Assembly (NCBI RefSeq): GCF_000428945.1
Contig: NZ_AUAX01000004.1
Span: forward strand, 248,001 to 312,000
Direction of reading: 5' to 3'
From: Hamadaea tsunoensis DSM 44101
GTDB lineage: Bacteria; Actinomycetota; Actinomycetes; Mycobacteriales; Micromonosporaceae
DNA: 64,000 bases
Below, piece after piece: positions 4,529 through 58,987 of the stretch. The notes below the pieces were generated by a model. That model searched no databases. It was not told the origin of the DNA and worked only from the letters and a program-made list of their open reading frames with translations. Position numbers and translations under genes: made by a program. Each line of letters begins with the position of its first letter. Within the stretch, counting starts at the first letter, position 1.

Positions 4529-7135
4529 TTACAGGGTGAGCGTCCAGCTGTTGATGTAACCGGTGTCGGCCGTCGCGGCGTCCTGTACGCGCAGCGTCCA
4601 GGTGCCGTTGCGGACCTCGGTCGACAGGTTCACCGTGTAGGTGGTGTCGATGTTGTCGGTCGAGCCGCCGGCCCGGTTGGACAGCACGTAGGTGCTGCCG
4701 TCGGGGGCGACGAGCGTGACGACGAGGTCACCGATGTAGGTGTGGACGATGTGCACCTCGACCGTGCTGGTCGACGACGCGTTCCCGGAGCAGCCCGAGA
4801 TCGCGATCGTGCTGTTGACCGTGGTGTTGTCGGGGATCGCCACGTCGGTGCCGTTCGTGCCCGAGCAGACCGGGCCGCCGCCGGGCGCCAGGTTCAGCGT
4901 CCAGGTGTTGATGTAACCGGTGTCGGCCGTCGCCGCGTCCTGTACGCGCAGCTTCCACGTCCCGTTCGCGACCTCGCTCGACAGGTTCACCGTGTAGGTG
5001 GTGTCGATGTTGTCGGTCGAGCCGCCGGCCCGGTTCGACAGCGTGTAGAGGCTGCCGTCGGGGGCGACGAGCGTGACGACGAGGTCACCGATGTAGGTGT
5101 GGACGATGTGCACCTCGACCGTGCTGCCCGCACCGGCGTTGCCGGCGCAGCCGGAGATCGTGATCGACGACTCGACGGTGGTGTTGTCGGGGATCGTCAC
5201 GTCCGTCGGGTTGGTGCCCGAGCAGCCGGGCGGCCCGTTGACCGTCAGGCTGAACGTGGTCGTGTGCGTGTTGGCCGTACCCGTGCCGGTGACCGTGATC
5301 GGGTAGGTGCCGGGCGAGGCGCTCGTCGTGGTGGTGAGCGTCAGCGTCGAGGAGCCGCCGGTGGTGACGCTCGTGGGGCTGAACGCCGCCGTGACGCCGG
5401 CCGGCAGGCCGCTCGCCGACAGGGCGATCGTCTGCGTGGCGCCGTTGGTCAGCGCCGTGCCCACGGTCGTCGAGACCGCGCTGCCCGGGTTGACCGAGCC
5501 GCTGTTCGGCGAGGTCGTGATGGAGAAGTCGTTGCCGCTCGGGCAGGCGGTGTCGCTGCCCGCCACGTTGACCGCCGTCCACGCCGCCTGGACCGCCTTG
5601 TACTCGGCGGAGCAGGAGCCGTAGAGGTCGGTCGCCGCCGACAGCGAGTACGCCCGCGCCGTGTTGGCCGGCGTGGTCGTGTTCACGTAGGAGGTGTTCG
5701 ACGTGAAGTAGACGTCGAGCGCCCGGAACCAGATCTTCTCCGCCTTCGTACGCCCGATCCCGGTGACCGCCGGCGCGCTGCCGCAGACGGGGCTGGTGCC
5801 GTACGCGGTCGCGCCGGTGCCCTCGGCCAGGTCGAAGTAGAAGTGGTTGGCCACACCCGAGGAGTAGTGGACGTCCTTGTTCTTGGTCGACGTGGACCAG
5901 CACGAGTCCGACGAGCCGTCGAGCGACGGGTTGTACATGTAGCGCAGCGGCGAGCCGTTGCCGTTGATGTCGATCTTCTCGCCGATGTTGTAGTCGCCGG
6001 GGTCCGACGTGTTGCCGGCGTAGAACTCGACCATCGTGCCGAAGATGTCGCTGGTGGCCTCGTTCAGGCCGCCGGACTCGCCGGAGTAGGTCAGGCCGCC
6101 GGGAACCACGTTCTCGGTGACGCCGTGGCTCATCTCGTGGCCCGCCACGTCGATCGCGACGAGCGGCTTGGCGTTGCCCGAGCCGTCGCCGTAGGTCATC
6201 TGCGCGCCGTCCCAGAACGCGTTGACGTAGCCCGAGCTGTAGTGCACCCGCGACGGCACACCCGCGCCCGTGCCGAAGATGCCGTTACGCGCGTGGACGT
6301 TCTTGTAGTAGTCGAACGTCAGCGCCGCGCCGTAGAGGGCGTCCACGCCGGCCGACTGGCGGTTGGCGTTCGTGCCCGTGCCCCAGACGTTGTCGGCGTC
6401 GGTGAAGTTCGTGCACGTGCTCGTGCCGTTGTTCATGTCGCAGGTGTTGCCGTTGCCGTGCGACGGGTCGATCATCGTGTAGGTGCTGCCGCTGAGCGTC
6501 GTGTCGACGGCGACCGAGCCGGAGTAGAGCGAGTTGCCCGTGCCCGCGACGGTCTCGATCTCGTCGAACGACCCCAGGTACGCCCCGGTCAGCGCGTCGG
6601 TGACGACGTGCAGCCGGGACGGGGTGGCGCCGTCGGGCGCGAAGCCGTCGGCGCGTACCTCCCAGGCGAGCCGGCCGCTGCCGCTGCTGGCGTCCACGAA
6701 CAGTTCGGCGTCGCCGACCTTCGTGAGGCTGCCGCGGAAGTGCTGCCGAGCCACGCCCTTCGCCTGTGCGGCGGTAACTTTCGCGGCCGTGCCGAGTGTC
6801 AGCGGGGCGGCGAGACCGACCGAGGTGCCCGCGTACGCGCCGGTCTTCGAGGTGTGCACGACGATGTCCCCGCCGTACACGCGCAGCCCCTGATACGTCC
6901 GCGTGTAGCGGGTGTGGGTGGCACCGTTCGCGTCCGCCTTGGTGCTGTAGACGCTGAACGTGTCCGCGTTCGCCGTCCGGGCATCGGCCCTATGATCGTT
7001 CAGGGCGCGCGCTGCGGCAGTCGGACCTCCCACGACCGACGGCCCGGTGGCGGGTGCGGCACCGGCCGGTGCCGTGCCCAGGAGCACACCGCCTGCGAGT
7101 AAGGCGGCGCCTGCCCAAGCAATTGTTCTTCTCAC
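4529..7135 (-). CDS. Secreted M4-family (thermolysin-like) zinc metalloprotease with two P-domains
   Basis: Extracellular endopeptidase made as a pre-pro-enzyme. Order of parts: signal peptide (1 to about 27), FTP/PepSY propeptide (about 45-190), M4 catalytic domain (about 200-520) with the zinc site HEMSH at 333-337, third ligand E359 in NEATSD and the substrate-side VHYSSG histidine. An Ig-like bacterial domain (about 535-630) and two proprotein-convertase P-domains end the protein. The last two domains are nearly identical and arise from a 357-bp duplication. The start is GTG 7135 with a GGGGAGG ribosome site at 7142-7148. It is divergent from the lipoprotein gene at 7208, which looks like an M4 inhibitor. 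Confidence 0.95.
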   Translation of the reverse strand: MRRTIAWAGAALLAGGVLLGTAPAGAAPATGPSVVGGPTAAARALNDHRADARTANADTFSVYSTKADANGATHTRYTRTYQGLRVYGGDIVVHTSKTGAYAGTSVGLAAPLTLGTAAKVTAAQAKGVARQHFRGSLTKVGDAELFVDASSGSGRLAWEVRADGFAPDGATPSRLHVVTDALTGAYLGSFDEIETVAGTGNSLYSGSVAVDTTLSGSTYTMIDPSHGNGNTCDMNNGTSTCTNFTDADNVWGTGTNANRQSAGVDALYGAALTFDYYKNVHARNGIFGTGAGVPSRVHYSSGYVNAFWDGAQMTYGDGSGNAKPLVAIDVAGHEMSHGVTENVVPGGLTYSGESGGLNEATSDIFGTMVEFYAGNTSDPGDYNIGEKIDINGNGSPLRYMYNPSLDGSSDSCWSTSTKNKDVHYSSGVANHFYFDLAEGTGATAYGTSPVCGSAPAVTGIGRTKAEKIWFRALDVYFTSNTSYVNTTTPANTARAYSLSAATDLYGSCSAEYKAVQAAWTAVNVAGSDTACPSGNDFSITTSPNSGSVNPGSAVSTTVGTALTNGATQTIALSASGLPAGVTAAFSPTSVTTGGSSTLTLTTTTSASPGTYPITVTGTGTANTHTTTFSLTVNGPPGCSGTNPTDVTIPDNTTVESSITISGCAGNAGAGSTVEVHIVHTYIGDLVVTLVAPDGSLYTLSNRAGGSTDNIDTTYTVNLSSEVANGTWKLRVQDAATADTGYINTWTLNLAPGGGPVCSGTNGTDVAIPDNTTVNSTIAISGCSGNASSTSTVEVHIVHTYIGDLVVTLVAPDGSTYVLSNRAGGSTDNIDTTYTVNLSTEVRNGTWTLRVQDAATADTGYINSWTLTL
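4530..5227 (-). repeat. Tandem 357-bp duplication encoding the two P-domains
   Basis: Two direct copies, about 4530-4870 and 4887-5227, have a period of exactly 119 codons (for example ttgatgtaac recurs at 4551 and 4908). Most differences are silent or conservative, so the duplication is recent or kept uniform by recombination. Both copies keep the VEVHIVHTYIGDL and DTGYIN motifs. Confidence 0.9.
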
Positions 7136-12870: not shown

Positions 12871-12932
12871 TCAAGATCAGATTCAGGTCCCGGGTTCGTC
12901 GATCTCACTTCCGCTCCTCGCGCGGGAGACCG
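12871..12932 (+). repeat. Dispersed repeat family B, copy 1
   Basis: Carries the shared core TCCCGGGTTCGTCGATCTCA and then CTTCCGCTCCTCgCGCGGGAG-type sequence ending in GAGACCG. Other copies are at 17915-17973 (same strand) and 13395-13453 (opposite strand). The core includes the near-palindrome CTCSCGCGGGAG. Confidence 0.8.
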
Positions 12933-13190
12933 CATCATCCACCGCGAATCGGTCACCCTTTCACCCGTCCAGCATCGGGGGATCATGATCGGAAACGCCG
13001 TTCGGGGGCCTGGTTCGATCGTGTCGGGGTCTGCCGTGTGATCGAGTACCCGGATTCTGTAGTAGTTGATCTCCATGGCTTGATCAAGCTCCCTGGAGCT
13101 GCGGAATCGACCCGTTTTCTGCAGGACTTGGGATCTTGATCATGCTTTCTCGTCGTGATCGAGCGGCACTGTCGAGCGTTCCGCCATGGG

Positions 13191-13337: not shown

Positions 13338-13394
13338 GCCGATGCTCCGCGGCTGCGATCTTTCGCACCTCGGCCGCAAAGGAGCACTTCGGAG

Positions 13395-13453
13395 CGGTCT
13401 CCCGCGGGAGGAGCGGAGGTGAGATCGACGAGTCCGGGACAAAATGATCTTGA
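13395..13453 (-). repeat. Dispersed repeat family B, copy 2 (inverted)
   Basis: Reverse complement of the family-B core, with a few substitutions (for example GGActCGTCGATC and CACcTCCG). It ends 73 bp before the SDR start codon, so it may affect that promoter. Confidence 0.8.
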
Positions 13454-15182: not shown

Positions 15183-16010
15183 ATGAGCATTCTGATCACA
15201 GGCGCCACCGGCCACATCGGCGGCACCCTCGTCCGCCTTCTCGACACCGCCGGCCACAAGACCCGCGCCTACGTCCGGGATCCGGCGCGGGCGAAGCTGC
15301 CCGCCGCCACCGAACTGCGGCAAGGCGATCTCGACGACCGGGAGGCGCTGGCCCGCGCCCTGGACGGCGCCGAGGCCGCCTTCCTGATGCAGGGCAACCA
15401 CGACGTCGCCCAGACCGAGACGATGATCGCGGCGGTACGCGCGGCCGGCGTACCCCGGGTCGTCGTGCTCTCGTCGATCGGCGCGGTCGTCGAGCCGCAA
15501 CCCCTGATGGGCACGTGGTTCGCGGCCAAGGAGAAGCTGTGGTCGGCCGCCGGGCCGGCGGTCACGTTCCTGCGCCCGAGCTCTTTCATGACCAACACCC
15601 TGTGGTGGCTGCCGGCGCTGCGCGAGCACGGGCACGTGGTGGACGCCACCGGTCCCGGGCGGATGTCCCCCGTGGACCCCGACGACATCGCCGCGGTCGC
15701 CGCCGCGGTGCTCACCGGGGACGGGCACGCGGGCCAGGGCTACACGCTGACCGGTCAGGAGCTGCTCACCACCCGCGAGCAGGCCGCCATCCTCGCCGCC
15801 GCGCTCGGTCGGCCGGTCGCGGTCGCCGACGCCACACCCGCGTACCTGGCCGGGCTGCCCGAGCCCCTCCGGGACCTCAACGCCCATCTGCGCGACGACC
15901 GCGTCGCGTTCCTCACCGACGCCGTGGCCCGACTGACCGGCCGGGCGCCGGGAACCTTCGAGGCCTGGTGCCGCCGGAATACGTCGGCCTTCGAGGGGAT
16001 CGCCGTGTAG
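15183..16010 (+). CDS. NmrA-like NAD(P)H-binding protein (atypical SDR)
   Basis: A 275-residue protein with an N-terminal Rossmann motif ITGATGHIGGTLV (residues 4-16). It has an atypical-SDR layout: RDPARAKLP, VVVLSSIGA, FLRPSSFMTN, and a C-terminal region resembling NAD(P)H:quinone oxidoreductase 2/NmrA proteins. It lacks a classical YxxxK active site, as usual for this group, so it may sense or use NAD(P)H. The gene is divergent from an MmyB-type regulator. ATG 15183 lies 6 nt after CAGATT, consistent with a short or absent leader. Confidence 0.88.
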   Translation: MSILITGATGHIGGTLVRLLDTAGHKTRAYVRDPARAKLPAATELRQGDLDDREALARALDGAEAAFLMQGNHDVAQTETMIAAVRAAGVPRVVVLSSIGAVVEPQPLMGTWFAAKEKLWSAAGPAVTFLRPSSFMTNTLWWLPALREHGHVVDATGPGRMSPVDPDDIAAVAAAVLTGDGHAGQGYTLTGQELLTTREQAAILAAALGRPVAVADATPAYLAGLPEPLRDLNAHLRDDRVAFLTDAVARLTGRAPGTFEAWCRRNTSAFEGIAV

Positions 16011-17879: not shown

Positions 17880-17914
17880 GCCGTGTACCGGGCGGGGCTG
17901 GATCCAGTTCAAGG

Positions 17915-17973
17915 TCAAGATCTTTTTGTCCCGGGTTCGTCGATCTCACTTCCGCTCCTCCCGCGGGAGACCG
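17915..17973 (+). repeat. Dispersed repeat family B, copy 3
   Basis: Starts TCAAGATC and contains the same TCCCGGGTTCGTCGATCTCA core as the copy at 12871. Weaker similarity to the first copy continues beyond 17973, as in TCGGTCACCGTTTC near 18044. The surrounding 660-bp gap (17828-18487) holds this copy, the argS hairpin and a family-D palindrome, but no gene that can be supported. Confidence 0.8.
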
Positions 17974-18089
17974 TTGCGCCCCTATCGCTGCGCTCCGGGG
18001 ACTCCACTGTCGGCACAGTGGGGCGACGCATCCTTCACCGTCTTTCGGTCACCGTTTCGATCAAGAAACGGCGACCATCGCGGACTGGC

Positions 18090-19995: not shown

Positions 19996-22900
19996 ATGAC
20001 CCACCGACTCCGCGTCGGTCGGCGGCACCTGCGGATCCTGGGGCCGGTCGCGGCCCTGCTGATCGTCGCGGGCGCGGGCACCGCCTTCCTTCCCAACGGC
20101 GCCTCCGGCGAGACCCCGGCCGCCGACGCCGGCGCCCCCACGCTCAGCGTGCGGGACGGCCAGACGCTCGAAGGCACCGTGAAGATCACGGCCGCGCCGG
20201 TGACCGAGGACGACTCGGTCGTCTCGCTCGCCGTCGACGGCGACCCGGTCGCCGCGGACCCCACGGCCGGCACGGCGCGGCTGAGCTTCGACATGGGCGG
20301 CAACGGCACCGAAGCCCGCTACCACAACTACATCGTGGTCAACGACCACACGGCCGAGAACGAGCGGATCTCCTTCCCGGACATCGCGGGCGGCGTACGC
20401 ACGACGCTCGACTTCCCGGGCGGCTGGCTGCACGCGGGCGGCAACACGATCACGGTGTACGCGGGCGCGAACTGGGTCGACACGACCAACGCGAGCGCGG
20501 TCGGCGTCGAGACGCTGCCCTACGGCGAGGGCCTGCGCTGCCCGAACTACGACGACTTCGCGCTGAGCAGCATCGGCCTGGGCCTGATCGGCGTGGTGGC
20601 CGACGCCGAGCAGAACGCGTTCAGCTACGCCTTCGGCGACGGCACCTGCGGCAGCGCGAAGCACCTGCTCAGCCAGCCGCTGACGTTCGTGGTCTCGGGC
20701 GAGCCGGGCAGCACCGCCGGGCTGAGCGCGTCCGTCGACACCACGAAGCTCGCCAACGGTACGCACAACGTCGTCGCCACCACCGAAGCGGGCGTACGCG
20801 CGGTCGCGACCGTCGAGGTCAACAACGCCCCGGCCGGTGCGGCGAGCGTGACCCCGGCCGACGGCGCGCTGGTACGCGGGACCAAGCCGGTCATCGCCGC
20901 CCTGCCGGCTGGATCCGACGGCTCGGTCCGGTCACTGTCCATCGACGACACTCCGGCCGAGAACGCGGAGTTCCTCGCGGACGGGACGGCGACGCTCGGC
21001 TTCACCGTCGAGGCGGGCAACTCGGTCGAGGCCAAATACCACGACTACGTGCTGGTCAACGGCAACCGGGTCGAGCTGGGGGGCGACTACGGCGTCCTCG
21101 GTGCCGAGGACGTCAGCCTCAGGCTGCCGAACCGGTTCCTGCACCCCGGCGACAACGTCGTCGAGCTCAAGACCGGTGACTACAACGGTACGCTCAACGG
21201 CGCGACCTGCGCGAACCACGACGACTTCAAGGTCACGCGTACGTCGGCGAGCCTGGTGCTGAGCACGGCGGGAACGGTGACGCCGGGGACCACGTACCTC
21301 GTCACGACGACCGGGGCGACGGTCACCAAGGCGGAGACGACGGCGGCGTCCCTCGCGCTCGGCGACGGGACCTGCGGCGCGAACAAGGAGGCCGAGTTCC
21401 ACTTCACGGTCTCGGACGCGCCGACCACGCGTACGGTGGCGACCCTGGGCGGTGGCGGGAACGCGCACCTGAAGGTGTTCGTCGGCGGCAACGGCTCCGA
21501 CAGCGGGTTCGACAACAAGGTCCTGATCAACGGCATCCCGCTGGACCTGGGCATCTGGGAGAAGGAGGTCGCGGACCTCGCGTTCCCGAACGAGTGGCTC
21601 GTGCCGGGCGTGAACGTGGTGGAGTTCGTCGCGGGCAGCGACCACGGCGGCGCGAACGCCGGCGGCTGCGACAACCACGACGACTTCACGCTGCGGGACT
21701 TCGCGCTGAACCCGGTGGGCGGCAAGGCGACCCAGCTGACGAAGGAGACCGCGGAGAACACGGTCACCATCGGCTCGGCCACCTACCCGGCCGGTACGCC
21801 GGTGACCGTCAACATCGGCGACGGCACCTGCGGCAGCAGCTTCAACTCCACACTGGACAAGGCGGTCTTCTTCGACGTCACCGCCCCGGACGGTACGCCG
21901 TCGCCGGCGCTCGGCCGGCGGGCCGACGTCGACACGGCACGGCTCGCCGACGGACGGCACACGATCACCGCGGCGGTCGGCGACAAGACCGCGAGGCGCC
22001 GCTTCAGCGTGGACAACACGGCGCCCGAGGTGGCGGGCAGCGTACCGGCGGAGGGGCAGCGGATCACCTCGACCGTGGTGCTCGACGTCCGGCTCCAGGA
22101 CGCCACGGGCATCGCCGGTACGCCGGTGCTGGCTCTCGACGGCAAGGCCGTGAAGCAGGGCGACGCCCTCGGCCACGGCCTGCCGGCCGGCAGCCACACC
22201 ATCGCGGTCACGGTTGCCGACGCGCTCGGCAACAAGGCCGTCCGCGAGATCCACTTCACCAGCGCCAGCATCCCGGACGTGCCGGCCGATCTCGGCGCGG
22301 CGGTGTCCGGCAACACCTCGCCGGCGGCCACGCTGTCGGCGACCGTTCCCGGTGAGGCGGGCGTACCGCTGACGGCGACGTTCACCAAGGCCGACGTCGT
22401 CCTGCCGACGACCGGGTACCAGGGCGAGGCGGCCGGCGTACCGACCACTTTGGACGTCGCCCACGACACGACGGTCAAGGTCGCATCGCTGCGGCCGCTC
22501 GACGGGCAGAGCGTCGACACGGCGTCCGGTCGCGACGTGGTGTTCCAGCGCTACGACCTCGCGGTCGGCACCGCTTCGGCGCCCATCCTGCGCTGGGAGG
22601 GCACCATCGACCCCGAGCGGGTCGTCGCCCTGCGGGTCTGGGACAAAGCGGCCCTCAAGTGGGTCGTGCTCACCAGCTCGCGCGGCAACGCCGCACACAG
22701 CACGGTGCTGACCGCGACGCTGGACGACAGGTACAAGGACGGCACCACCGCCCATGTGCTCGTCACCGGCGAGGACCCGTTCGCCGACGACCTGTCGCCG
22801 CGCGACGCCACCGCGCAGAACGACAAGGACCACTTCGAGGACCCCGGCACCTACGACTTCTCGATCGCCCACTTCACCGACACGCAGTACCTCACCGAGG

Positions 22901-24819
22901 GCGCGGCCGGCGGCACCTACGACGACTGGGACGGCAGGACCGAGGCCGCCGACGTCGAGACCGCCGAGGAGCAGGCGATCTGGCAGGCCGCGTACAAGTC
23001 CGAGACGCAGTGGATCGCGGACAACGAGGCCGGGCGGAAGATCGCGTACACCGCGCACACCGGTGACGTCATCGAGAACGACTACTACGACCCGCTCGCG
23101 AGGAACCCCGACGGCTCGCTCGTGCGGCCCGGCCTGAACGAGGAGGTCGACAAGGAGCTGGCGGTCTCGTCGGGCTACCAGAAGATCCTCGACGACAACG
23201 GCGTCGTGAACCAGGTGATCGCCGGCAACCACGACGACCAGCTGGGCGCCGAGACCGGTCCCGACTCCCGGTTCAGCAGGACGTTCAGCGCCGAGCGGTA
23301 CTACAACGTCGGCAAGAGCTGGCCGGCGGGCGCCTCGTACCACGCGTGGGACGAGGTCACCAACGCCGACGGCAGCGTCACGCCGGGCAAGGACAACCAG
23401 AACAACTACGTCCTGTTCTCGGCCGGCGGGCTGGACTTCGTAGCGGTCGGCCTCTCCTACGGCGTCACCCCGGCCGAGGCGAAGTGGGCGGACTCGATCT
23501 TCAAGCGCTACAAGGACCGCAACGGCATCCTGCTGTCGCACGACTACCTCAAGCCGTCGGCCAACGCGGACGGCCGCGGCGCCGCGTTCTCCGACCCGGA
23601 CGGTTCGGCCCTCTACCAGCAGGTCGTCCTGACCAACCCGAACGTCTTCCTGATCCTCGCCGGCCACGAGCACGGCGTCGGCATCAACCTCAAGACGGGC
23701 GTCGGCGTCACCGTCACCCACGACGTCGTCGAGCTGCTGGCGGACTACCAGTTCTACACCGTTGCGGCGGGCGAGCTGTGGCCCGGCAAGGCGGACGCGA
23801 ACGGCGACATCGACGTCGACGGCGACGGCGTACCCGACCACAAGGCGACCGACCGGCTCCAGTTCGGCGCGAGCTTCCTGCGCCTGCTGCAGTTCGACGT
23901 CGCCCGCTCCGAGATGCACATCGACACGTACTCGCCGTTCCTGAACAACTTCGGCGCGACCGAGTACGACATCCGCCAGGACGGCAGCCAGACCAAGCCG
24001 CGCTACAACGGCTCGGAGGACAACCTGACCCTGCCGGTCGACCTCACCACCCGCAAGACCTCGTTCTCGACCGACTCGCTCGCCGCGTACGTGCCGGCCG
24101 GGACGATCGGCACCGACGGGATCACGGCCGGCGGCACCGCCACCGTCACGTGGTCCGGCCTCACCCCGGCCACCTCGTACGCGTGGATCGTCGCCGCCCG
24201 CAGCGCGGACGACGGTGTGGCGGTGGCCCAGCCGGCGGTCTTCCGTACGCCGAAGGGCAAGCCGTCCCTGACCGTGACCGCCCCGGCGACCAGCTGGGGT
24301 ACGCCCGCGAAGGCGACCGTGCAACTCGGCGCCGGCACGGCTCCCGCCACGGGACAGGTCGAACTGCGCGAGGGCGACAAGGTGCTCGGCTCGACGAACC
24401 TGACGGGCGACACCGCGACGATCACCCTCCCGGCGGGACTGTCCGGTGGCGACCATGCCCTGACGGCCGCGTACGCGGGCAACGAGTACCTGGAAGCCGC
24501 ACAGGGCACGGGAACCGTCACGGTGAACCTGCCCGCCGCGTGGTCGGCCACCAAGGTCTACAACGCCGGCGACCGGGTGACCTTCGCCGGCAAGGTCTAC
24601 GCCGCCTCCTGGTACGCGAAGAACGCCCAGCCGGGGGACGCGTACGGGGCGTGGCAGGAACTGGCGATGACGGAGGACGGCACCGCGCTGTGGACGCCGT
24701 CGCGCATCTTCAACGCCGGAGATGTGGCCGTGTACCAGGGCAAGACGTTCAAGGCCCGCTGGTACACCCGCAACCAGGCGCCTGGCGACCCCTACGGCCC
24801 CTGGGCGCTGATCGGGTAA
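19996..24819 (+). CDS. Very large secreted calcineurin-like metallophosphoesterase with carbohydrate-binding repeats
   Basis: A 1607-residue exported protein. A Sec signal (about 1-38) is followed by three related modules of about 150-170 residues (about 45-245, 290-475 and 480-640). Each module carries (K/R)YH(D/N)Y or DNKVLING, a FP..WL..G.N.. segment, NHDDF/NYDDF and GDGTCG. Ig-like stretches follow. The phosphoesterase domain has FTDTQY (D about 962), GDVIEND (about 1022), GNHDD (1077-1081) and GHEHG (1223-1227), the five metal-binding motifs of the family. FN3/Ig-like domains and two CBM5/12-like repeats (about 1515-1558 and 1565-1607, with YNAGDRVTF..GK.Y.A.WY) close the protein. ATG 19996 has AAGGAGAA upstream. 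Its substrate is unknown. Confidence 0.9.
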   Translation: MTHRLRVGRRHLRILGPVAALLIVAGAGTAFLPNGASGETPAADAGAPTLSVRDGQTLEGTVKITAAPVTEDDSVVSLAVDGDPVAADPTAGTARLSFDMGGNGTEARYHNYIVVNDHTAENERISFPDIAGGVRTTLDFPGGWLHAGGNTITVYAGANWVDTTNASAVGVETLPYGEGLRCPNYDDFALSSIGLGLIGVVADAEQNAFSYAFGDGTCGSAKHLLSQPLTFVVSGEPGSTAGLSASVDTTKLANGTHNVVATTEAGVRAVATVEVNNAPAGAASVTPADGALVRGTKPVIAALPAGSDGSVRSLSIDDTPAENAEFLADGTATLGFTVEAGNSVEAKYHDYVLVNGNRVELGGDYGVLGAEDVSLRLPNRFLHPGDNVVELKTGDYNGTLNGATCANHDDFKVTRTSASLVLSTAGTVTPGTTYLVTTTGATVTKAETTAASLALGDGTCGANKEAEFHFTVSDAPTTRTVATLGGGGNAHLKVFVGGNGSDSGFDNKVLINGIPLDLGIWEKEVADLAFPNEWLVPGVNVVEFVAGSDHGGANAGGCDNHDDFTLRDFALNPVGGKATQLTKETAENTVTIGSATYPAGTPVTVNIGDGTCGSSFNSTLDKAVFFDVTAPDGTPSPALGRRADVDTARLADGRHTITAAVGDKTARRRFSVDNTAPEVAGSVPAEGQRITSTVVLDVRLQDATGIAGTPVLALDGKAVKQGDALGHGLPAGSHTIAVTVADALGNKAVREIHFTSASIPDVPADLGAAVSGNTSPAATLSATVPGEAGVPLTATFTKADVVLPTTGYQGEAAGVPTTLDVAHDTTVKVASLRPLDGQSVDTASGRDVVFQRYDLAVGTASAPILRWEGTIDPERVVALRVWDKAALKWVVLTSSRGNAAHSTVLTATLDDRYKDGTTAHVLVTGEDPFADDLSPRDATAQNDKDHFEDPGTYDFSIAHFTDTQYLTEGAAGGTYDDWDGRTEAADVETAEEQAIWQAAYKSETQWIADNEAGRKIAYTAHTGDVIENDYYDPLARNPDGSLVRPGLNEEVDKELAVSSGYQKILDDNGVVNQVIAGNHDDQLGAETGPDSRFSRTFSAERYYNVGKSWPAGASYHAWDEVTNADGSVTPGKDNQNNYVLFSAGGLDFVAVGLSYGVTPAEAKWADSIFKRYKDRNGILLSHDYLKPSANADGRGAAFSDPDGSALYQQVVLTNPNVFLILAGHEHGVGINLKTGVGVTVTHDVVELLADYQFYTVAAGELWPGKADANGDIDVDGDGVPDHKATDRLQFGASFLRLLQFDVARSEMHIDTYSPFLNNFGATEYDIRQDGSQTKPRYNGSEDNLTLPVDLTTRKTSFSTDSLAAYVPAGTIGTDGITAGGTATVTWSGLTPATSYAWIVAARSADDGVAVAQPAVFRTPKGKPSLTVTAPATSWGTPAKATVQLGAGTAPATGQVELREGDKVLGSTNLTGDTATITLPAGLSGGDHALTAAYAGNEYLEAAQGTGTVTVNLPAAWSATKVYNAGDRVTFAGKVYAASWYAKNAQPGDAYGAWQELAMTEDGTALWTPSRIFNAGDVAVYQGKTFKARWYTRNQAPGDPYGPWALIG

Positions 24820-24828
24820 CCGCTCCCG

Positions 24829-24905
24829 AGATCCCGTTTGGATCAGGGATCGCCACGTGATCATGAGCCATGATTCGGGTGATTTCCCTGATCCAAACGG
24901 GATCT
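24829..24905. repeat. Palindromic repeat family A, copy 1
   Basis: Perfect 21-bp arms (24829-24849 and 24885-24905; AGATCCCGTTTGGATCAGGG plus A) around a 35-nt core with ATCATG-agc-CATGAT at its centre. It lies between two convergent gene ends. A 16-bp direct repeat, TCTTCGCGTACTCAGG, follows at 24903 and 24923, and its second copy contains the stop codon of the SGNH hydrolase gene. Confidence 0.85.
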
Positions 24906-24933
24906 TCGCGTACTCAGGAGGGTCTTCGCGTAC

Positions 24934-27021
24934 TCAGGGGAGTGCTTTGAAGGCCGCGTCGAGGCGGGCGGCGAGTTTGTCGTGGCCCGACGCGCTCGGG
25001 TGCGGGCACCCGCCCAGCGCCGTCGTCTGGATGTCCGCCGCCGCGAACAGCGGCGGCGTCTGGGCCAGGACCTTCGGGTTCGCCGGTATCCCGGCGAGAA
25101 TGGCGTTGTTGAGGTCCGTCGTCACCGTGCGCACCGCGCCCACCCAGGCCGGATCGACCAGCGGCTGGAGCGTGGGCGTCACGGTCGGCGGCATCAGCCC
25201 CACGACCCACCCCGGCGAGTACGCGCGGACGTAGTACCAGCCGAAGTTGCCGATGTCGATGTTCGCCGGGTTGATGTCGTAGTAGAGCATCCACACGACC
25301 TTGTCCGCCCCGGCGTTGAGCATCGTCTGCACGATGGTCCCGGCGTCGGCCGTGATCGTCGGATACTGGGCCGGCCCGTCGTACCGCGGTACGCCTTCGC
25401 GGATGAACCAGTCCGTGCCGAACGGATTGGGGTTGCGGATACGCCAGACGCAGCCGCCCCCGTTGGTGATGATCCCGTTGCGGCCGCCGATCGCGGCCCA
25501 GGTGAAGGTGCTCATGTTGGCCCACGTCTGGGCGGCGAACTCCAGCCCGCGGCACTTGATCAGCTGCTGGAGCACGGTGGTCCAGTTGGTGTTGTTGATG
25601 CCGCCGGTCGTGACGTAGTACGCCTTCTTCCCGTCGGCCTTCGCCTGCCGCGTGACGGCGGCCGCCTGGGCGACCGGCGCGGCCGCCCGGCCCCACGGGT
25701 TGCCGCAGGCGTCCGGCGTGGCTGGCCCGGCCGCCAGCATGTCCCGCGTCGTGAACCCGGTACGCGCGAAGTTGTAGTACTCGCTCACGTTCGGGTTCAG
25801 GTTGTTGGTGTACCGCCCCGCGTAGCTGAAGATCGCGTTGTTGCCGACCAGGTTCCGGTTGTCGAAGGACGTGTTCGCGCACATCGCGCCGAAGCCGAAC
25901 TGGTGGTGGGCCGACGTCACGGAGTCGCCGGTCGCGGTGAGGACGACCGGGTTGTTCGGGTCGGGGATCGTGTTCGGGTCCCGGCACACGATCCGGTCCT
26001 TGAGCGCCTCGGCCGGCTCGGTCGCGCAGGCCTTCTTCGACGGCGACGGGGAGGGCGCGGGCGTCGTCGGCGGCGGCGACACCGGGCAGGGCGACGCGCT
26101 CGGGCTCGCGCTGCCGGACCGGCACGGCGACGGGGACGGTGTCGCGCTCTTCGACGGGCTGGCCGACGGGCACGCCGACGCGGACGGCCCCGACGACGCG
26201 GAACTCGACGGGCACGGCGACCGGCTCGGACTCGGCGAGGTGCTCGGACTCGGCGACCCCGATCCCGACGGGGACGCGCAGGCCGACGGCGACGCACCGC
26301 CGGACGCGCACGGGCTCGCGCTCGCGCTCGCGCTGGCCGACGGGCTGGCGCTGCGGGAGGCCGACGCGCTCGCGGACGCCGTCCGGGTCGGCGATCCCGT
26401 CGGGCCGCCCGTGGGGGTGGAACTCGCGCACGGATCCGCCGAACCGGTCGGGCTCGGCGTCGCGGTCCCGGTCGCGCTCGGTGTCGCACTCGGACTGCGC
26501 GTCGGGCTCGCCGTCGCGGTGGCCGTACTCGTGGCGGCGGCACTCGTGGCGACAACGTTCGCGGCAGCGGCCTTCGCGTCGAGGACGGTGTTCGCCCCGG
26601 CGACGCCGTCCACGGCGTCTTGCGCGGCGGCGGGGGAGACCGGTGCGGTCGAGTGGAGAGTGGCGCTCGGCGTCGGTGTCGCCGAACCCGATCGGGACGC
26701 CGACGGCGAGGCCGACGCGGAGCGGCTCGGCGACCCGGTCGGTGTCGCGGACGGTCCGCACCGTTCGGCCCGCAACTGGGCGAGGGCGGCCACGACGTCG
26801 TCGGGCAGCGGCTGCCCCTCGGGGATGCAGGGATCGAAGTACCACGCACTGAAGTCGAGGTCGCGTACGCAGGGCGACTCGTCGGCGACCGTGGTCATCG
26901 CCGGTGCGGCTGGCGGCGGGGTGTGGGCCGCGGCGTACACGGACCCGGCCCCGAGGGTCACGAGGAAGGCGGCGGCCCCGGCCACGAAGGGCTGGAGCCT
27001 GCGCCGGATGCTGGTCGGCAT
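24934..27021 (-). CDS. Secreted SGNH/GDSL-type hydrolase with a very long Ser/Pro/Ala linker
   Basis: A 695-residue exported protein. A signal peptide (about 1-32) precedes about 50 residues of unique sequence. A low-complexity linker follows (about residues 88-335), built of SP, SA and SAS repeats with scattered Cys. The C-terminal SGNH domain has block I TATGDSVTSAHH (about 360-371), a GGINNTNW element with the conserved Gly/Asn, and block V HPSASGHDKLA near the end supplying the catalytic His. It likely cleaves ester bonds in a lipid or polysaccharide outside the cell. ATG 27021 was chosen because the signal peptide begins there; the in-frame extension to 27162 lies in a repeat element and is discounted. 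No strong ribosome site is visible. Confidence 0.85.
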   Translation of the reverse strand: MPTSIRRRLQPFVAGAAAFLVTLGAGSVYAAAHTPPPAAPAMTTVADESPCVRDLDFSAWYFDPCIPEGQPLPDDVVAALAQLRAERCGPSATPTGSPSRSASASPSASRSGSATPTPSATLHSTAPVSPAAAQDAVDGVAGANTVLDAKAAAANVVATSAAATSTATATASPTRSPSATPSATGTATPSPTGSADPCASSTPTGGPTGSPTRTASASASASRSASPSASASASASPCASGGASPSACASPSGSGSPSPSTSPSPSRSPCPSSSASSGPSASACPSASPSKSATPSPSPCRSGSASPSASPCPVSPPPTTPAPSPSPSKKACATEPAEALKDRIVCRDPNTIPDPNNPVVLTATGDSVTSAHHQFGFGAMCANTSFDNRNLVGNNAIFSYAGRYTNNLNPNVSEYYNFARTGFTTRDMLAAGPATPDACGNPWGRAAAPVAQAAAVTRQAKADGKKAYYVTTGGINNTNWTTVLQQLIKCRGLEFAAQTWANMSTFTWAAIGGRNGIITNGGGCVWRIRNPNPFGTDWFIREGVPRYDGPAQYPTITADAGTIVQTMLNAGADKVVWMLYYDINPANIDIGNFGWYYVRAYSPGWVVGLMPPTVTPTLQPLVDPAWVGAVRTVTTDLNNAILAGIPANPKVLAQTPPLFAAADIQTTALGGCPHPSASGHDKLAARLDAAFKALP

Positions 27022-27121: not shown

Positions 27122-27208
27122 CTCCAAGATCCCGTTTGGATCAGGGATCGCCACGTAATCATGGGCCATGATTCGGGTGATTTCCCTGATCCAAACGGGA
27201 TCTTGGAG
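27122..27208. repeat. Palindromic repeat family A, copy 2
   Basis: Perfect 26-bp arms (27122-27147 and 27183-27208), the longest of the family, around the 35-nt core with palindrome AATCATGG-g-CCATGATT. It lies between the start of the SGNH hydrolase gene and the end of lutC, both on the minus strand. It could end lut transcription or insulate the next promoter. Confidence 0.85.
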
Positions 27209-27225: not shown

Positions 27226-27825
27226 TCACGCCGTGACGAGGACGACGATGAGCGTACGCGGGCCGTGGACCCCTTCCACGCGGTTCAGCTCGATGTCGCT
27301 GGTGGCCGACGGCCCGCTCACGAACGTCAGCGGCCGGGCCGGGTCGAGCCGGTGCAGCAGCTCGGGAACCGTCTGCACGACCTGGTCGGCGAGGACCACG
27401 CACACGTGCCGGTCCGGGATCAGCGTCAGCGCCCGCCGGCCCTGCCCGGGGCCGCCGTCGAGGGCGATCGTCCCGGTCTCGGCGCACGCCGCGGCGCAGC
27501 CGGTGAGCACCGCGTCGATCCGGTCGAGGTCCGCGTACGCCAGATCGTCGTCGACGGCGGCCCCGGGCAGCGGGAGCGGCGAGCCGGGCGGGACCACGAC
27601 GGACCAGCCGAGGGTGATCTCGGCGAGCTTGCCGGGCAGCTCGGCGGCGGTGACCCGGTGGACCGTGGCCTTGTAGTCGTCGAGCCGGTCGGTGAGCAGG
27701 TCGAGCAGGCGCGGGTCGCCCGAGGCGTGGTCGCCGAAGATGCGGTAGTCGCGCGGCACGGCCGGGGCGGTGACACCGGCGGTGGCGGCGCGGATCCGGC
27801 CGAGAATGTCCTCGCGCGCGCTCAT
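27226..27825 (-). CDS. lutC: Lactate utilization protein LutC (LUD domain)
   Basis: A 199-residue LUD-domain protein, the third component of the LutABC L-lactate oxidation complex that feeds electrons from lactate to the respiratory chain. Family landmarks are ITLGWSVVVPPGSPLPLP, TGCAAACAETGTIALDGGPGQGRRAL and the closing SDIELNRVEGVHGPRTLIVV. ATG 27825 overlaps the stop of the preceding small ORF (ATGA) and has a GGAGG site upstream. It is the last gene of the lut operon, followed by a family-A hairpin. Confidence 0.93.
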   Translation of the reverse strand: MSAREDILGRIRAATAGVTAPAVPRDYRIFGDHASGDPRLLDLLTDRLDDYKATVHRVTAAELPGKLAEITLGWSVVVPPGSPLPLPGAAVDDDLAYADLDRIDAVLTGCAAACAETGTIALDGGPGQGRRALTLIPDRHVCVVLADQVVQTVPELLHRLDPARPLTFVSGPSATSDIELNRVEGVHGPRTLIVVLVTA

Positions 27826-33822: not shown

Positions 33823-35705
33823 TCACCGAGCCAGCTGCGCATGGACGCGTCGTCGGCCGCGGCCTCGTCACGCCGGCGCCGCCGGTCCGCCCGTGTCTCC
33901 CGGGGCGGCTCGGCCTGCTCCGGCGCGGGCCCGGCCCGGCGGCCGGCCTTGTCCGGCTGCCGGCCCGACGTCGGCGGGGCAGCGGGTGCCGGGGCGGCCG
34001 GTGGCGGGGGCGGCGGTGCGGGTGCCTGCGGCGCGGGCGGCACGACCGGCGACGAGGAGGCTTCCTCCCGCGGCGGGGTGTCCTTGCGCCGCCCGAACCG
34101 CGACTCCTTCTTCGGCCGCGGCGGCGGCTCGGCCTTCTCCCGCTTCTCCCGCTGGGCCGGCACCGCGCCGGTCGGCTCCCGCAGCGCCGACGCGGTCGGC
34201 GGCATTGTCGGCGGGGCGGCCGGGAGGGACGAGGACCGCCCGGTGGGGGACGTGTCCTCGCTCAGCCACGAATCGGTGATCGAATCACTCGGCCACTCGA
34301 CCTTCCGCGTCGTGTCCAGCGGATCGTACGCGTGGCTCCCGGTGGTGGTCATCGGGTCGTACGTCCGGCTGCCGGTGGTGGTCATCGGGTCGTACGAGCG
34401 GCTGCCGGTGGTGGTCATCGGGTCGTAGGACCGGCTGCCGGTGGTGGTCATCGGGTCGTAGGACCGGCTGCCCGTGCTCGTCGCGGGGTCGCCGGAGCGG
34501 CCGCCCGGCTCGGGGAAGTCGAACGCGCCCGTCGTCTCGGCGGACACCCGCGGAGCGGGCACGTCCACAGCGGACACCGCCGGGTCCACCATCTCCGGGA
34601 CGCTTCGGCGGTGCCGTCGGCGGCTCCACGCGTACTCGATGATGTTGAGCCAGAAGGCCACGACGGCGAGATCGAGGAGCGACAGCCCGGCGCTGAGCCG
34701 GTCGGTGATCTTGAAAAGCGCCACGACGACGGCGAAGGCGGCGAGCCGGGTCCAGGGGATGCGGCGCAGGAACACCCACTGGCCCGCCACGAACGTGATC
34801 AGGTAGAGGGCGAACCCGCCGAACAGCAGGGCCGCGACGCCGAAGGGCAGCGGCTCGCCGGGGTGGGCGACGGCCTCGCCGAGACCGACGGCGACGCCGA
34901 GGACGCCGGCGACGAAGAACAGGTGGGTGAACCCGACGAGCCCGCCGAGCTGGTCGCCGCGCAGGGCGCGCGCAGGCCGCTCGGTGCCGGCGGCGTAGTG
35001 GAGGTAGAGCCACCACAGCCCGCAGACGAGGGCGAACCCGCTGGCCAGCGCGGCCACGATGGACGGGGTGAGGTGTTCGAGGCCGACCACGGTGGCGCCG
35101 ATCGCGAGGACGGCCTCGCCGAGCGCGAGGAGCAGGAACAGGCCGTAGCGCTCGCGCAGGTGCTTCGGCTCGAACGCGGCGGCGGCCGGCCTGCCCCCGA
35201 CGACGCGCGGCAGCACCAGGTCGGCGACCACGGCGACGGCCCACGCGCCGAGCCGCCAGTTCCCCGGCAGGAAGGCGCCGGCGAGCATGATCGGCCCGCT
35301 GATCTGGGACAGGAGCATGAAGGTGGGGCTGGGGTCCTCAGGCGTGCGGCGCAGCTGCTGCAGCAGCGTCACCACGACCCGCTGGGCCAGGAACGCGGCG
35401 CCGAAGACGATGCCCCGGTCCCCGAATGCCTCGGGCACCGAGACCGCCATGACCAGCGCGCACAGCCCGGCGGCGAAATGGGCGAGGCGCTCGGCGGGCG
35501 AGTCGGAGCCCTTGACGTTGGTGTAGGTGACCATCGCGGCCCAGGCCCAGTACAGCGGCACGAACAGGACGACGGCACGGGCCCCGCCCATGAGGGTCGG
35601 TCCTGCCCCGGCGAGCGGGTGGAGCAGGGCGGACACCTGCACGATGGCGAAGACGAAGACGAGATCGTAGAAGAGCTCGACCGGCGAGACGGACTTCGGC
35701 TGCAC
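33819..35705 (-). CDS. LtrA (low temperature requirement A) family membrane protein with repetitive tail
   Basis: 628 residues. The N-terminal part (about 1-375) is a multi-helix membrane domain of the LtrA family: it begins VSPVELFYDLVFVFAI and contains KHLRERYGLFLLLALGE. The C-terminal 250 residues are cytosolic and disordered. They include five 11-residue repeats TGSRSYDPMTT encoded by a 33-bp minisatellite, then Pro/Ala-rich and Arg-rich segments. The LtrA family has no firm biochemical role. The start is GTG 35705, 15 bp after the sugar-isomerase gene, so it may ride on that operon; the MFS gene is coupled downstream. The long tail is unusual for the family. Confidence 0.88.
   Translation of the reverse strand: MQPKSVSPVELFYDLVFVFAIVQVSALLHPLAGAGPTLMGGARAVVLFVPLYWAWAAMVTYTNVKGSDSPAERLAHFAAGLCALVMAVSVPEAFGDRGIVFGAAFLAQRVVVTLLQQLRRTPEDPSPTFMLLSQISGPIMLAGAFLPGNWRLGAWAVAVVADLVLPRVVGGRPAAAAFEPKHLRERYGLFLLLALGEAVLAIGATVVGLEHLTPSIVAALASGFALVCGLWWLYLHYAAGTERPARALRGDQLGGLVGFTHLFFVAGVLGVAVGLGEAVAHPGEPLPFGVAALLFGGFALYLITFVAGQWVFLRRIPWTRLAAFAVVVALFKITDRLSAGLSLLDLAVVAFWLNIIEYAWSRRRHRRSVPEMVDPAVSAVDVPAPRVSAETTGAFDFPEPGGRSGDPATSTGSRSYDPMTTTGSRSYDPMTTTGSRSYDPMTTTGSRTYDPMTTTGSHAYDPLDTTRKVEWPSDSITDSWLSEDTSPTGRSSSLPAAPPTMPPTASALREPTGAVPAQREKREKAEPPPRPKKESRFGRRKDTPPREEASSSPVVPPAPQAPAPPPPPPAAPAPAAPPTSGRQPDKAGRRAGPAPEQAEPPRETRADRRRRRDEAAADDASMRSWLGE
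34318..34482 (-). repeat. 33-bp minisatellite in the LtrA gene (five units)
   Basis: Units start at 34318, 34351, 34384, 34417 and 34450, and share ATCGGGTCGTA and CGGCTGCCGGTGGTGGTC. Because 33 is a multiple of three, gain or loss of units keeps the frame and only changes the number of TGSRSYDPMTT repeats in the protein. Confidence 0.92.
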
Positions 35706-52032: not shown

Positions 52033-52665
52033 ATGAAGCTCACAGTCTTCGGCGCCACCGGCGGGATCGGCACGGAGGTCGTCCGCCAGGCGCTGCGCTC
52101 GGGGCATTCCGTGACCGCGGTCGTCCGCGACCCGGCACGGCTGCCGGTCGAGGACGGGGCCTTGGAGAAGGTCGTGGCGGACGTGTTCGACGCCGAGGAG
52201 ATCGCGGCCTACGTCAAGGGCGCCGACGCCGTGGTGAGCGCGCTGGGGCCCCGCGAAGGCGGTCCGGCGACGGTCGTGCGCGACGGGGCGGCCGCGGTCC
52301 GCTGGGCGATGCGCGAGACGGGCGTACGCCGGATCGTGCTCGTCTCGGCCGCCGGCCAGAAGACCGCGCCGGGCGACGACCCGCTGACGCGCTACGTCGC
52401 GAAGCCGATCGTGCAGCGGGTGTTCCGGGACGGCTTCGCCGACCTGGCCGCGATGGAGACGGTGATCCGCGGCAGCGGCCTGGACTGGACGCTCGTACGC
52501 CCGCCGCGGCTGGTCGACAAGCCGGGCCGGGGCCGCTACCGGCGGGGCGTCGACCGCAACGTGCCGTTCGGCTTCTCGATCGCCCGGGCGGACGTCGCGA
52601 CCGAGATCCTGCGGGCGGTCCCGGATCCGCTGACCTTCGGCCACGAGGTCTGGATCGCCTACTGA
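52033..52665 (+). CDS. NAD(P)-binding atypical SDR (NmrA/SDR_a5-like)
   Basis: A 210-residue Rossmann protein: FGATGGIGTEVVRQAL (residues 5-20), VVRDPARLPV, DAVVSALGP, RIVLVSAAG and LDWTLVRPPRL. Belongs to the small NAD(P)H-binding group related to flavin reductase/BVR-B. The substrate is unknown. ATG 52033 has GGGGGAGGG upstream and is divergent from a TetR gene, whose palindromes lie in its promoter, so it is probably an inducible detoxification or redox gene. Confidence 0.9.
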   Translation: MKLTVFGATGGIGTEVVRQALRSGHSVTAVVRDPARLPVEDGALEKVVADVFDAEEIAAYVKGADAVVSALGPREGGPATVVRDGAAAVRWAMRETGVRRIVLVSAAGQKTAPGDDPLTRYVAKPIVQRVFRDGFADLAAMETVIRGSGLDWTLVRPPRLVDKPGRGRYRRGVDRNVPFGFSIARADVATEILRAVPDPLTFGHEVWIAY

Positions 52666-52712
52666 CCCGCCCAGGCGCCCTACGGCCGCGCACGGGCGCC
52701 CGGGCGCCCGGC

Positions 52713-52793
52713 CAAGATCGGGTTTGGATCAGGTTTTCGCACGTAATCATGGGTCATGATTACGTGGATTTCCCTGATCCAAACCCGATCTTG
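52713..52793. repeat. Palindromic repeat family A, copy 3 (variant)
   Basis: Perfect 21-bp arms (52713-52733 and 52773-52793). Two bases differ from the other copies (CAAGATCGGG instead of CAAGATCCCG), and both are compensated in the other arm. The core carries a perfect 12-bp palindrome, CACGTAATCATG-ggt-CATGATTACGTG (52740-52766). It lies between convergent gene ends. Confidence 0.85.
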
Positions 52794-53939: not shown

Positions 53940-54060
53940 TCAGCTGGTACGCCCGCGCGGGAGAGTCCGTGCACGCATCACGGCGCCGAAGGGGCAATTC
54001 CTCCCCGGAACCTCTCAGGCACCCGGACCGTGCGGGTCGGCAACGCTGGAGCAGGGCCCG
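53940..54060 (+). ncRNA. Glycine riboswitch upstream of gcvP
   Basis: The aptamer hallmarks occur in order: GCGCGGGAGAGTCC (53955-53968), GCGCCGAAGGGGCAA (53983-53997), CCGGAACCTCTCAGGC (54005-54020) and GGACCG (54025-54030). Only one complete aptamer is visible, so this looks like a singlet type. It precedes gcvP, the classical target; glycine binding should turn on expression. Confidence 0.92.
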
Positions 54061-54128: not shown

Positions 54129-56935
<2,807 letters not shown>

Positions 56936-56939
<4 letters not shown>

Positions 56940-58851: not shown

Positions 58852-58888
58852 CGCCTCGCCGCTCCCGACCTGCCGCGCCCCTGCAACG

Positions 58889-58969
58889 CAAGATCCCGTT
58901 TGGATCAGGGAAATCGCCCGAATCTTGGTCCAAGATTACGTGGCGATCCCTGATCCAAACGGGATCTTG
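58889..58969. repeat. Palindromic repeat family A, copy 4 (opposite orientation)
   Basis: Perfect 22-bp arms (58889-58910 and 58948-58969) with the usual CAAGATCCCGTTTGGATCAG arms. The core is inverted relative to copies 1 and 2, and its centre reads AATCTTGG-t-CCAAGATT instead of AATCATGG..CCATGATT, a compensated double change. It lies between convergent gene ends. Confidence 0.85.
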
Positions 58970-58987
58970 AGGAGCTGACCTGCCGCG

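What the first reader, a model, noticed from the sequence alone, without database searches (positions are those of the whole stretch)
24829..24905. Family-A palindromes: four near-identical intergenic hairpins with compensatory changes
Copies at 24829, 27122, 52713 and 58889 have perfect 21-26-bp arms built on CAAGATCCCGTTTGGATCAG. In the third copy CCC has become GGG-type sequence in the left arm, and the right arm has changed to match. In the fourth copy the central AATCATGG/CCATGATT has become AATCTTGG/CCAAGATT, again on both sides. Changes that keep pairing argue that the folded form matters, as DNA cruciform or as RNA. No protein or transposase is encoded.
Basis: partly seen in the sequence, partly recalled or inferred. 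Interest (0 to 1): 0.85.

Follow-up and report, generated by a model that had tools for sequence, protein, structure and literature searches.

The report
Repeated hairpins at bacterial gene ends
A soil actinomycete of the genus Hamadaea carries roughly 200 or more copies of an about 83-base palindrome just after the ends of genes, a REP-like element with no REP-type transposase found, whose look-alikes in other genera keep the hairpin shape while changing its letters.

Summary
The four palindromes are real, fold strongly (z -8.9 to -13.7) and are a small sample: the genome holds 187 exact-pattern copies, about 240 by extrapolation. All four genomes searched of this genus (Hamadaea) carry a related form; 196 other family genomes show 0-2 matches each. 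In 852 kb, all 38 placeable hits lie within 69 bp of an upstream stop codon, 22 between convergent genes and none in a divergent spacer. They lack a T-tract (0 of 72 flanks) and follow C-rich, G-poor sequence. Compensatory change is real but partial: 5 of 21 variable pairs here, 9 of 19 in sister species, and several of the most variable pairs show none. Core bases hardly vary; decayed copies are rare. Two other genera carry palindromes of the same length with a related centre and different, complementary arms. No Y1 (REP) transposase was found in the four genomes, nor an Rfam match. Best reading: REP/BIME-like 3'-end hairpins kept in place by sequence-specific constraint. Function is inferred.

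The parts
24826..24906 (+). copy 1 of the palindrome, between convergent ORFs 19996-24819(+) and 24934-27021(-), 6 bp after the first stop codon
   Evidence: RNA fold -56.7 kcal/mol, z -9.4
27124..27206 (+). copy 2, between tandem ORFs 24934-27021(-) and 27226-27825(-), 19 bp after the stop codon of the upstream gene
   Evidence: RNA fold of 27122-27208 -66.9 kcal/mol, z -12.1
52712..52793 (+). copy 3, between convergent ORFs 52033-52665(+) and 52837-53823(-); one of the lowest-scoring full copies (65.4); the matching gene end in G061 and G039 holds the sister-type palindrome
   Evidence: fold z -11.5
58889..58970 (-). copy 4 (inverted), between convergent ORFs 58030-58851(+) and 58988-60769(-)
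   Evidence: fold of 58888-58969 z -10.9

Best explanation
These are copies of a REP/BIME-like intergenic palindrome, about 83 bp in this species, that sits just downstream of stop codons and is probably transcribed as a strong hairpin. Shown: high copy number, restriction of the exact form to the genus among the genomes searched, placement at 3' ends, near-invariant core bases, absence of a T-tract, C-rich G-poor sequence between stop codon and element, and no Y1 transposase. Inferred: the hairpin defines and protects the mRNA 3' end in either direction, probably with Rho-type rather than U-tract termination, which suits convergent gene pairs; and a sequence-specific partner that recognises boxes in each arm (GGATCA, AATCWTGG) keeps the copies alike. 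How copies spread is not known; the usual REP transposase was not found.
For: Placement: of 39 hits in 852 kb, 22 are convergent, 16 tandem, 0 divergent, 1 at the edge of the stretch. Counting spacers of at least 80 bp once each, 20 of 69 convergent, 16 of 167 tandem and 0 of 113 divergent hold an element (divergent against rest p=5.5e-7). All 38 placeable hits are within 69 bp of an upstream stop codon, median 21.5, against 23% within 70 bp for random placement in the same spacer classes. Both orientations occur in tandem spacers (6 same, 10 opposite). Between stop and element C is 53% and G 27% (53 gene ends) against 36% and 32% (288 ends without); in convergent spacers C exceeds G in 31 of 34 against 62 of 108 segments, p=0.00017. 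A Rho RNA-binding domain is present in 4 of 4 genomes of the genus. Constraint: 14 positions never change in either arm of 35 aligned copies, while positions 4 and 38 change in 31-40%. Of 36 full copies 33 score 80 or more, then 66, 65 and 51; three half copies score 48, 42 and 34; nothing lies between 13 and 33; a reversed control gives 0 hits. In two other genera 0 of 23 classifiable loci are divergent and 18 of 23 lie within 100 bp of an upstream stop codon (read). Published REPs lie mostly between convergent and unidirectional genes (PMC3733652, abstract and passages) and are said to facilitate Rho-dependent termination (PMC2817692, passage).
Against: No transcript data exist here. Termination alone needs neither a conserved sequence nor a fixed length. 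Avoidance of divergent spacers would also follow from selection against insertions into promoters. Hairpin-plus-T sites are as frequent at gene ends with an element (2 of 54) as without (11 of 286), so the element does not visibly replace them. C also exceeds G in 62 of 108 convergent segments without an element. In the other genera 5 of 23 loci lie 119-382 bp from the nearest upstream stop codon. The profile finds copies by likeness, so strongly changed copies may be missed.
Confidence: 0.45

Rival explanations
1. A non-autonomous mobile element (MITE or REPIN-like) spread by an unidentified transposase; placement at 3' ends only reflects loss of copies that hit promoters or genes.
For: High copy number and genus-specific form; frequent presence/absence differences at orthologous gene ends: where a sister genome has such a palindrome own has one at 7 of 22 ends, against 13 of 126 where the sister has none; half copies exist.
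Against: No Y1 transposase in 4 of 4 genomes; no target-site duplication signal for 2-9 bp at offsets 0-5 over the full copies; 62 of 63 collected copies are distinct and few full copies are decayed, unlike a burst followed by decay. Other transposase families were not searched.
Confidence: 0.27
2. Double-stranded DNA binding sites for a chromosome-wide protein (gyrase or a nucleoid protein), as for E. coli BIMEs, placed at gene ends to absorb transcription-driven supercoils.
For: Strong constraint on arm letters, with several variable pairs free of covariation; convergent spacers hold elements more often than tandem ones (20 of 69 against 16 of 167, p=0.0005); in E. coli gyrase cleavage sites are over-represented in BIME-2 and downstream of highly transcribed operons (PMC6379681, abstract and passages).
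Against: Look-alikes in other genera keep long complementary arms while changing the letters, which a plain binding site need not do; no binding data.
Confidence: 0.18
3. Paired changes are a by-product of DNA-level correction of imperfect palindromes (template switching) or gene conversion among copies, with no selection on the folded form.
For: At the two best covarying own sites the pairs are A-T and T-A and the mismatches A-A or T-T, with no G-U; A/T and C/G complement changes make up 158 of 278 differences from the consensus in the unselected set.
Against: Does not explain the 3'-end placement or the invariant core; a degenerate recognition motif (W or S positions) would give the same letters.
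Confidence: 0.1

Closest known systems
REP / BIME elements (GTAG-tagged, RAYT-associated)
   Same: High-copy intergenic palindromes, mostly between convergent or tandem genes, downstream of coding regions; inverted pairs of units; some bind gyrase or aid Rho termination (PMC3733652, PMC2817692, PMC6379681: abstract or passages seen).
   Different: About 83 bp here (55-bp core) instead of 20-40 bp; no consistent GTAG or CGTC tag at the ends; no Y1 (RAYT-type) transposase in the four genomes.
CGTC-tagged REPs
   Same: Palindromic repeats that apparently lack a dedicated transposase (PMC3733652, abstract).
   Different: No consistent CGTC tag; other length and sequence.
I-shaped / U-poor terminators and Rho-dependent 3' ends with protecting hairpins (Streptomyces clavuligerus Term-seq, PMC8269248, passages)
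   Same: Strong hairpin downstream of stop codons without a U-tract; C-rich sequence upstream.
   Different: Such terminators are not, as far as the passages say, one conserved sequence family in hundreds of copies.
ERIC / RUP-type MITEs (recalled, from no call)
   Same: Short intergenic near-palindromes without coding capacity.
   Different: No target-site duplication signal here; no parent transposon identified or searched for.

Membership tests
REP/BIME (RAYT-associated) | high-copy extragenic palindrome | tested here: met
   187 exact-pattern copies in the genome; none of 39 hits in 852 kb lies inside a called gene, though some overlap a gene end, by up to 65 bp
REP/BIME (RAYT-associated) | location between convergent or tandem genes, downstream of coding regions | tested here: met
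   22 convergent, 16 tandem, 0 divergent, 1 at the edge; spacer counts; distances
REP/BIME (RAYT-associated) | cognate Y1 tyrosine transposase (RAYT) in the genome | tested here: not met
   PF01797: 0 of 4 genomes of the genus at E<=0.01; control rings in 6 of 14 genomes. In other family genomes 1 of 7. Three of the four assemblies are drafts
REP/BIME (RAYT-associated) | GTAG or CGTC tetranucleotide tag at one end | tested here: not met
   GTAG or CGTC, either strand, within 10 nt of an end in only 3 of 36 full copies
MITE of a DDE transposase | target-site duplication | tested here: not met
   direct-repeat identity of the flanks equals shuffled flanks for 2-9 bp at offsets 0-5; duplications at single copies are not excluded
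MITE of a DDE transposase | parent transposon sharing the ends | not tested
   no search for long elements with these ends was made
canonical intrinsic terminator | T-tract directly after the hairpin | tested here: not met
   0 of 72 flanks have 4 or more T in the first 8 nt
known RNA family (Rfam 15) | match at gathering score | tested here: not met
   window: only a glycine riboswitch; 9 loci with palindromes: none
Rho-dependent 3' end | transcript ends at or near the element, lost on Rho inhibition | not testable with these tools
   no RNA data; C-rich, G-poor upstream sequence and presence of Rho are only consistent

The most novel reading that the evidence does not exclude
An undescribed Micromonosporaceae system: palindromes of near-fixed length (about 54-57 bp) at gene ends with a related centre (GAATCWTGG-type in the nearest sets), recognised by an unknown dedicated protein whose specificity drifts between lineages, so that tens to hundreds of sites per genome are rewritten in concert, partly at the same gene ends, while both arms stay complementary.
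Probability: 0.22. Interest if true: 0.8.

Novelty: new variant of a known kind. Interest (0 to 1): 0.55.

Why it matters
If right, REP-like 3'-end palindromes exist in a GC-rich actinomycete family without the transposase that goes with REPs, which separates 'REP = RAYT-mobilised' from 'REP-like = functional 3'-end structure'. They would be a natural set of hundreds of near-identical sites for testing how convergent genes in GC-rich bacteria end transcription without U-tracts, and a case of concerted evolution of dispersed short repeats.

Tried and rejected
RAYT-type REP: rejected as a membership claim (no Y1 transposase). MITE with target-site duplication: no signal. Intrinsic terminator with U-tract: rejected. 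Rfam family: none. A second Rho-like gene, present in all four genomes of the genus, was considered as a partner: read by eye, 15 of 22 genomes with 10 or more TGATCATG palindromes have two Rho matches, but 7 have one and many genomes without palindromes have two, so this led nowhere.

Positional conservation: own against sisters is only weakly above the base rate (7 of 22 against 13 of 126, p=0.013); some spacers are counted twice because both neighbouring genes or two sister genomes enter, the pattern used was loose and takes in a GATCACGG-type palindrome of another family, and convergent spacers carry elements often anyway, so independent gain at favoured sites is not excluded. Between G039 and G061 it is 5 of 6 against 0 of 31 gene ends, the 5 ends being 3 spacers.

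Superseded: the palindrome finder was too strict (replaced); the table used wrong offsets (2 copies, replaced); one search failed on a syntax error (rerun); the spacer test counted hits instead of spacers and is replaced (the p values became weaker: 1.6e-7 to 5.5e-7 and 6e-5 to 5e-4). Dropped rows: one of 36 full copies (C4:403092, an indel) before the column counts; L221 (a G051 match that is a short GC hairpin, not this element) before the arm comparison. Of 69 Hamadaea loci brought (list) 60 were used; of 24 other loci 20 were looked at and share only the searched ends. The invariance of GGATCAGGG in sister copies is not counted, because those loci were fetched with that exact pattern. The covariance model R1 contains the pairing, so its matches in other genera lean towards paired arms. 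Gene positions come from my own codon-based caller trained on this genome, not from an annotation, and are less sure in other genera.

Full report
OBSERVATION. Each folds as one long hairpin on either strand, -50.3 to -66.9 kcal/mol, z -8.9 to -13.7. The arm motif has 8 matches in the window against 0 in 100 shuffles. Perfect outer arms are 21, 26, 21 and 23 bp. Copy 4 is inverted relative to the other three, which explains part of its apparent difference.

COPY NUMBER AND RANGE. The window lies in an unnamed 9.48-Mb genome. It holds 115 copies with exact TTTGGATCAG N40-60 CTGATCCAAA and 187 with GGATCAGG N30-55 CCTGATCC, against 0 for the reversed control. In 852 kb (C4:1-452000, C1:1-400000) a profile from 44 copies finds 39 hits at E<1e-3: 36 full and 3 half copies. 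28 of the 36 full copies match the exact pattern, so the genome total extrapolates to about 240. Three further genomes of the same genus have 137, 65 and 146 matches; of 196 other genomes of the family 25 have 1 or 2 and the rest 0, and the listed matches lack the inner boxes.

ANATOMY. In the own genome: CCAAGATCCCGTTTGGATCAGG - variable left inner part - AATCWTGG N CCAWGATT - CGGGTGATTTCCC - TGATCCAAACGGGATCTTGG. Each half of about 41 nt begins and ends with a CCAWGAT-type box, and two of the three half copies start at the centre. The inner parts of the two arms differ and are mostly unpaired. In sister species the outer arm is CGCTGGATCAGGG and the middle TTCTCGGTC or similar.

PLACEMENT. 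With my own gene calls the 39 hits are 22 convergent, 16 tandem, 0 divergent and 1 at the edge of the stretch. Counting each spacer of at least 80 bp once, 20 of 69 convergent, 16 of 167 tandem and 0 of 113 divergent spacers hold one (37 of 39 hits assigned; divergent against rest p=5.5e-7, convergent against tandem p=5e-4). All 38 placeable hits are within 69 bp of an upstream stop codon, median 21.5; random placement in the same classes gives 23% within 70 bp. Some overlap a called gene end, by up to 65 bp. Orientation in tandem spacers is not fixed (6 same, 10 opposite). The flanks have no T-tract (0 of 72). Between stop codon and element C is 53% and G 27% (53 ends) against 36% and 32% (288 ends without); in convergent spacers C exceeds G in 31 of 34 against 62 of 108 segments.

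COVARIATION. Total pairing exceeds permutations of the right arm: own 62 distinct copies 1965 of 2542 cells against 1927.6 +/- 6.9 (highest of 2000 permutations 1950); 34 distinct copies of the unselected set 1051 of 1394 against 1023.4 +/- 5.6; sisters 58 distinct copies 1566 of 1798 against 1529.1 +/- 8.1. The tool's count on a mixed set of 33 distinct rows gives 83.8% paired against 81.1 +/- 0.7 and a covariation score of 0.100 against 0.075 +/- 0.008 (0 of 500 shuffles as high for either), while pairs with a change on both sides (8 against 7.3, 206 of 500) and further pair types (13 against 14.8, 496 of 500) are not raised. Relatedness of copies is not removed by these shuffles. Single pairs with p<0.05 are 5 of 21 (own), 3 of 21 (unselected) and 9 of 19 (sisters), led by own 38/46 (44 of 62 paired against 32.0) and 4/80 (48 against 38.3) and sister 14/50 (46 of 58 against 31.5). 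Against it: in sisters 17/47, 18/46 and 28/36 vary with no covariation, and at the two own sites 18 of 63 and 14 of 63 copies are unpaired. At those own sites the letters are only A or T, without G-U steps.

CONSTRAINT. In 35 aligned copies of the unselected set fourteen positions never change in either arm, while positions 4 and 38 change in 31-40%. Copies differ from one another by 12.1 of 83 positions on average. 33 of 36 full copies score 80 or more, the others 66, 65 and 51 (window copy 3 is one of these, 65.4); three half copies score 48, 42 and 34, seven further fragments 6 to 12, and a reversed control gives 0. This fits upkeep in place, or rapid loss of decayed copies, better than a burst of transposition. 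I find no target-site duplication signal and no Y1 transposase (control rings in 6 of 14).

RELATIVES. At the gene end of window copy 3, G061 and G039 carry the sister-type palindrome. At other shared gene ends a different palindrome, or none, is present. A covariance model of the 55-nt core matches all four genomes of the genus and three others of 101 at E<=1e-4: G009 (7), G016 (24) and G051 (1) (at most 56 candidates scored per genome). The G051 match is a short GC hairpin and not this element (L221). At E<=0.001 G009 has 8 and G016 73 matches, both strands counted. Their sequences read, for example, GTTTCGGGGAAAGTGC..GAATCTTGG..GCACTTTCCCCGAAAC: length 54-55, related centre, other arms. Of the 25 loci read (19 of G016, 6 of G009), 23 are classifiable: 11 convergent, 12 tandem, 0 divergent; 18 lie within 100 bp of an upstream stop codon and 5 lie 119-382 bp away (read). 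Left arms pair with right arms of their own set over the outer 24 positions in 88% (sisters), 89% (G016) and 77% (G009), against 49-71% across sets; own left with own right arms give 68%, no better than the best cross-set values. The model search favours paired arms, so this is suggestive only. A wider set of TGATCATG-bounded palindromes occurs in 66 of 121 family genomes, 0 to 102 matches each; of 12 such loci 4 are inside called genes.

MECHANISM. Shown: the points above. Inferred: transcription through the hairpin, 3'-end protection and Rho-type termination in both directions, and a sequence-specific partner. Streptomyces clavuligerus Term-seq describes strongly structured U-poor 3' ends as possible I-shaped terminators or Rho-dependent ends (PMC8269248, passages); REPs are said to facilitate Rho-dependent termination (PMC2817692, passage) and to lie mostly between convergent and unidirectional genes (PMC3733652, abstract and passages). 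Gyrase binding of BIMEs is the main DNA-level alternative (PMC6379681, abstract and passages).

NOVELTY. Searches of the held library list no paper whose title or abstract start describes such elements in Hamadaea or Micromonosporaceae; searches matched 508 and 1,658 papers, of which I saw 15 and 12, and the library lacks most subscription papers. The RepRanger survey (PMC12306157) has no occurrence of Micromonospora or Hamadaea in its main text (find only).

Noticed in passing
own genome C1 (loci L066-L085), e.g. C1:2872-2945, 15598-15675, 75275-75354, 296803-296876: A second palindrome family CGACGATCTTGCGCGAATGT..ACATTCGCGCAAGATCGTCG of about 74 bp with a variable, unpaired centre, many copies in 400 kb.
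   Followed up: no
own genome C1:264030-264169, 96653-96793, 250935-251074, 107956-108065: Further nested palindrome families (CTTGATCAAATACCGC.., CATGATCGTTTACGG.., TTGATCATGTAACGCC..) that share CWWGATC-type boxes; CAAGATC is about tenfold over-represented in spacers (185 against 18.1 expected), in part through the palindromes themselves.
   Followed up: partly
own genome C1:202027-202684: A spacer with two truncated family-A pieces about 540 bp apart and other palindromes between them.
   Followed up: partly
own genome C4:1-180000: No family-A hit in the first 180 kb of C4, although the next 272 kb of that contig and 400 kb of C1 hold all 39.
   Followed up: no
window 12887-12933, 13394-13440, 17913-17978: Another repeated stretch (GTCCCGGGTTCGTCGATCTCACTTCCGCTCC..) in inverted and direct copies, two of them next to GATCTTGACC-type boxes.
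   Followed up: no
window 34276-34505: 33-bp tandem repeats inside a gene call.
   Followed up: no
window 4532-5188: Two 300-bp copies, 89% identical, starting 357 bp apart.
   Followed up: no
window 53948-54040: Glycine riboswitch (Rfam RF00504) upstream of ORF 54129-56939.
   Followed up: no
G000:C1:197278-197484: A second match to the Rho RNA-binding domain besides the main Rho in all four genomes of the genus and in many other genomes of the family.
   Followed up: partly
family genomes, e.g. G117, G099, G064, G070: TGATCATG-bounded palindromes, many of them 57 bp long, in 66 of 121 genomes, up to 102 matches per genome, with lineage-specific arms; some single matches are inside genes.
   Followed up: partly
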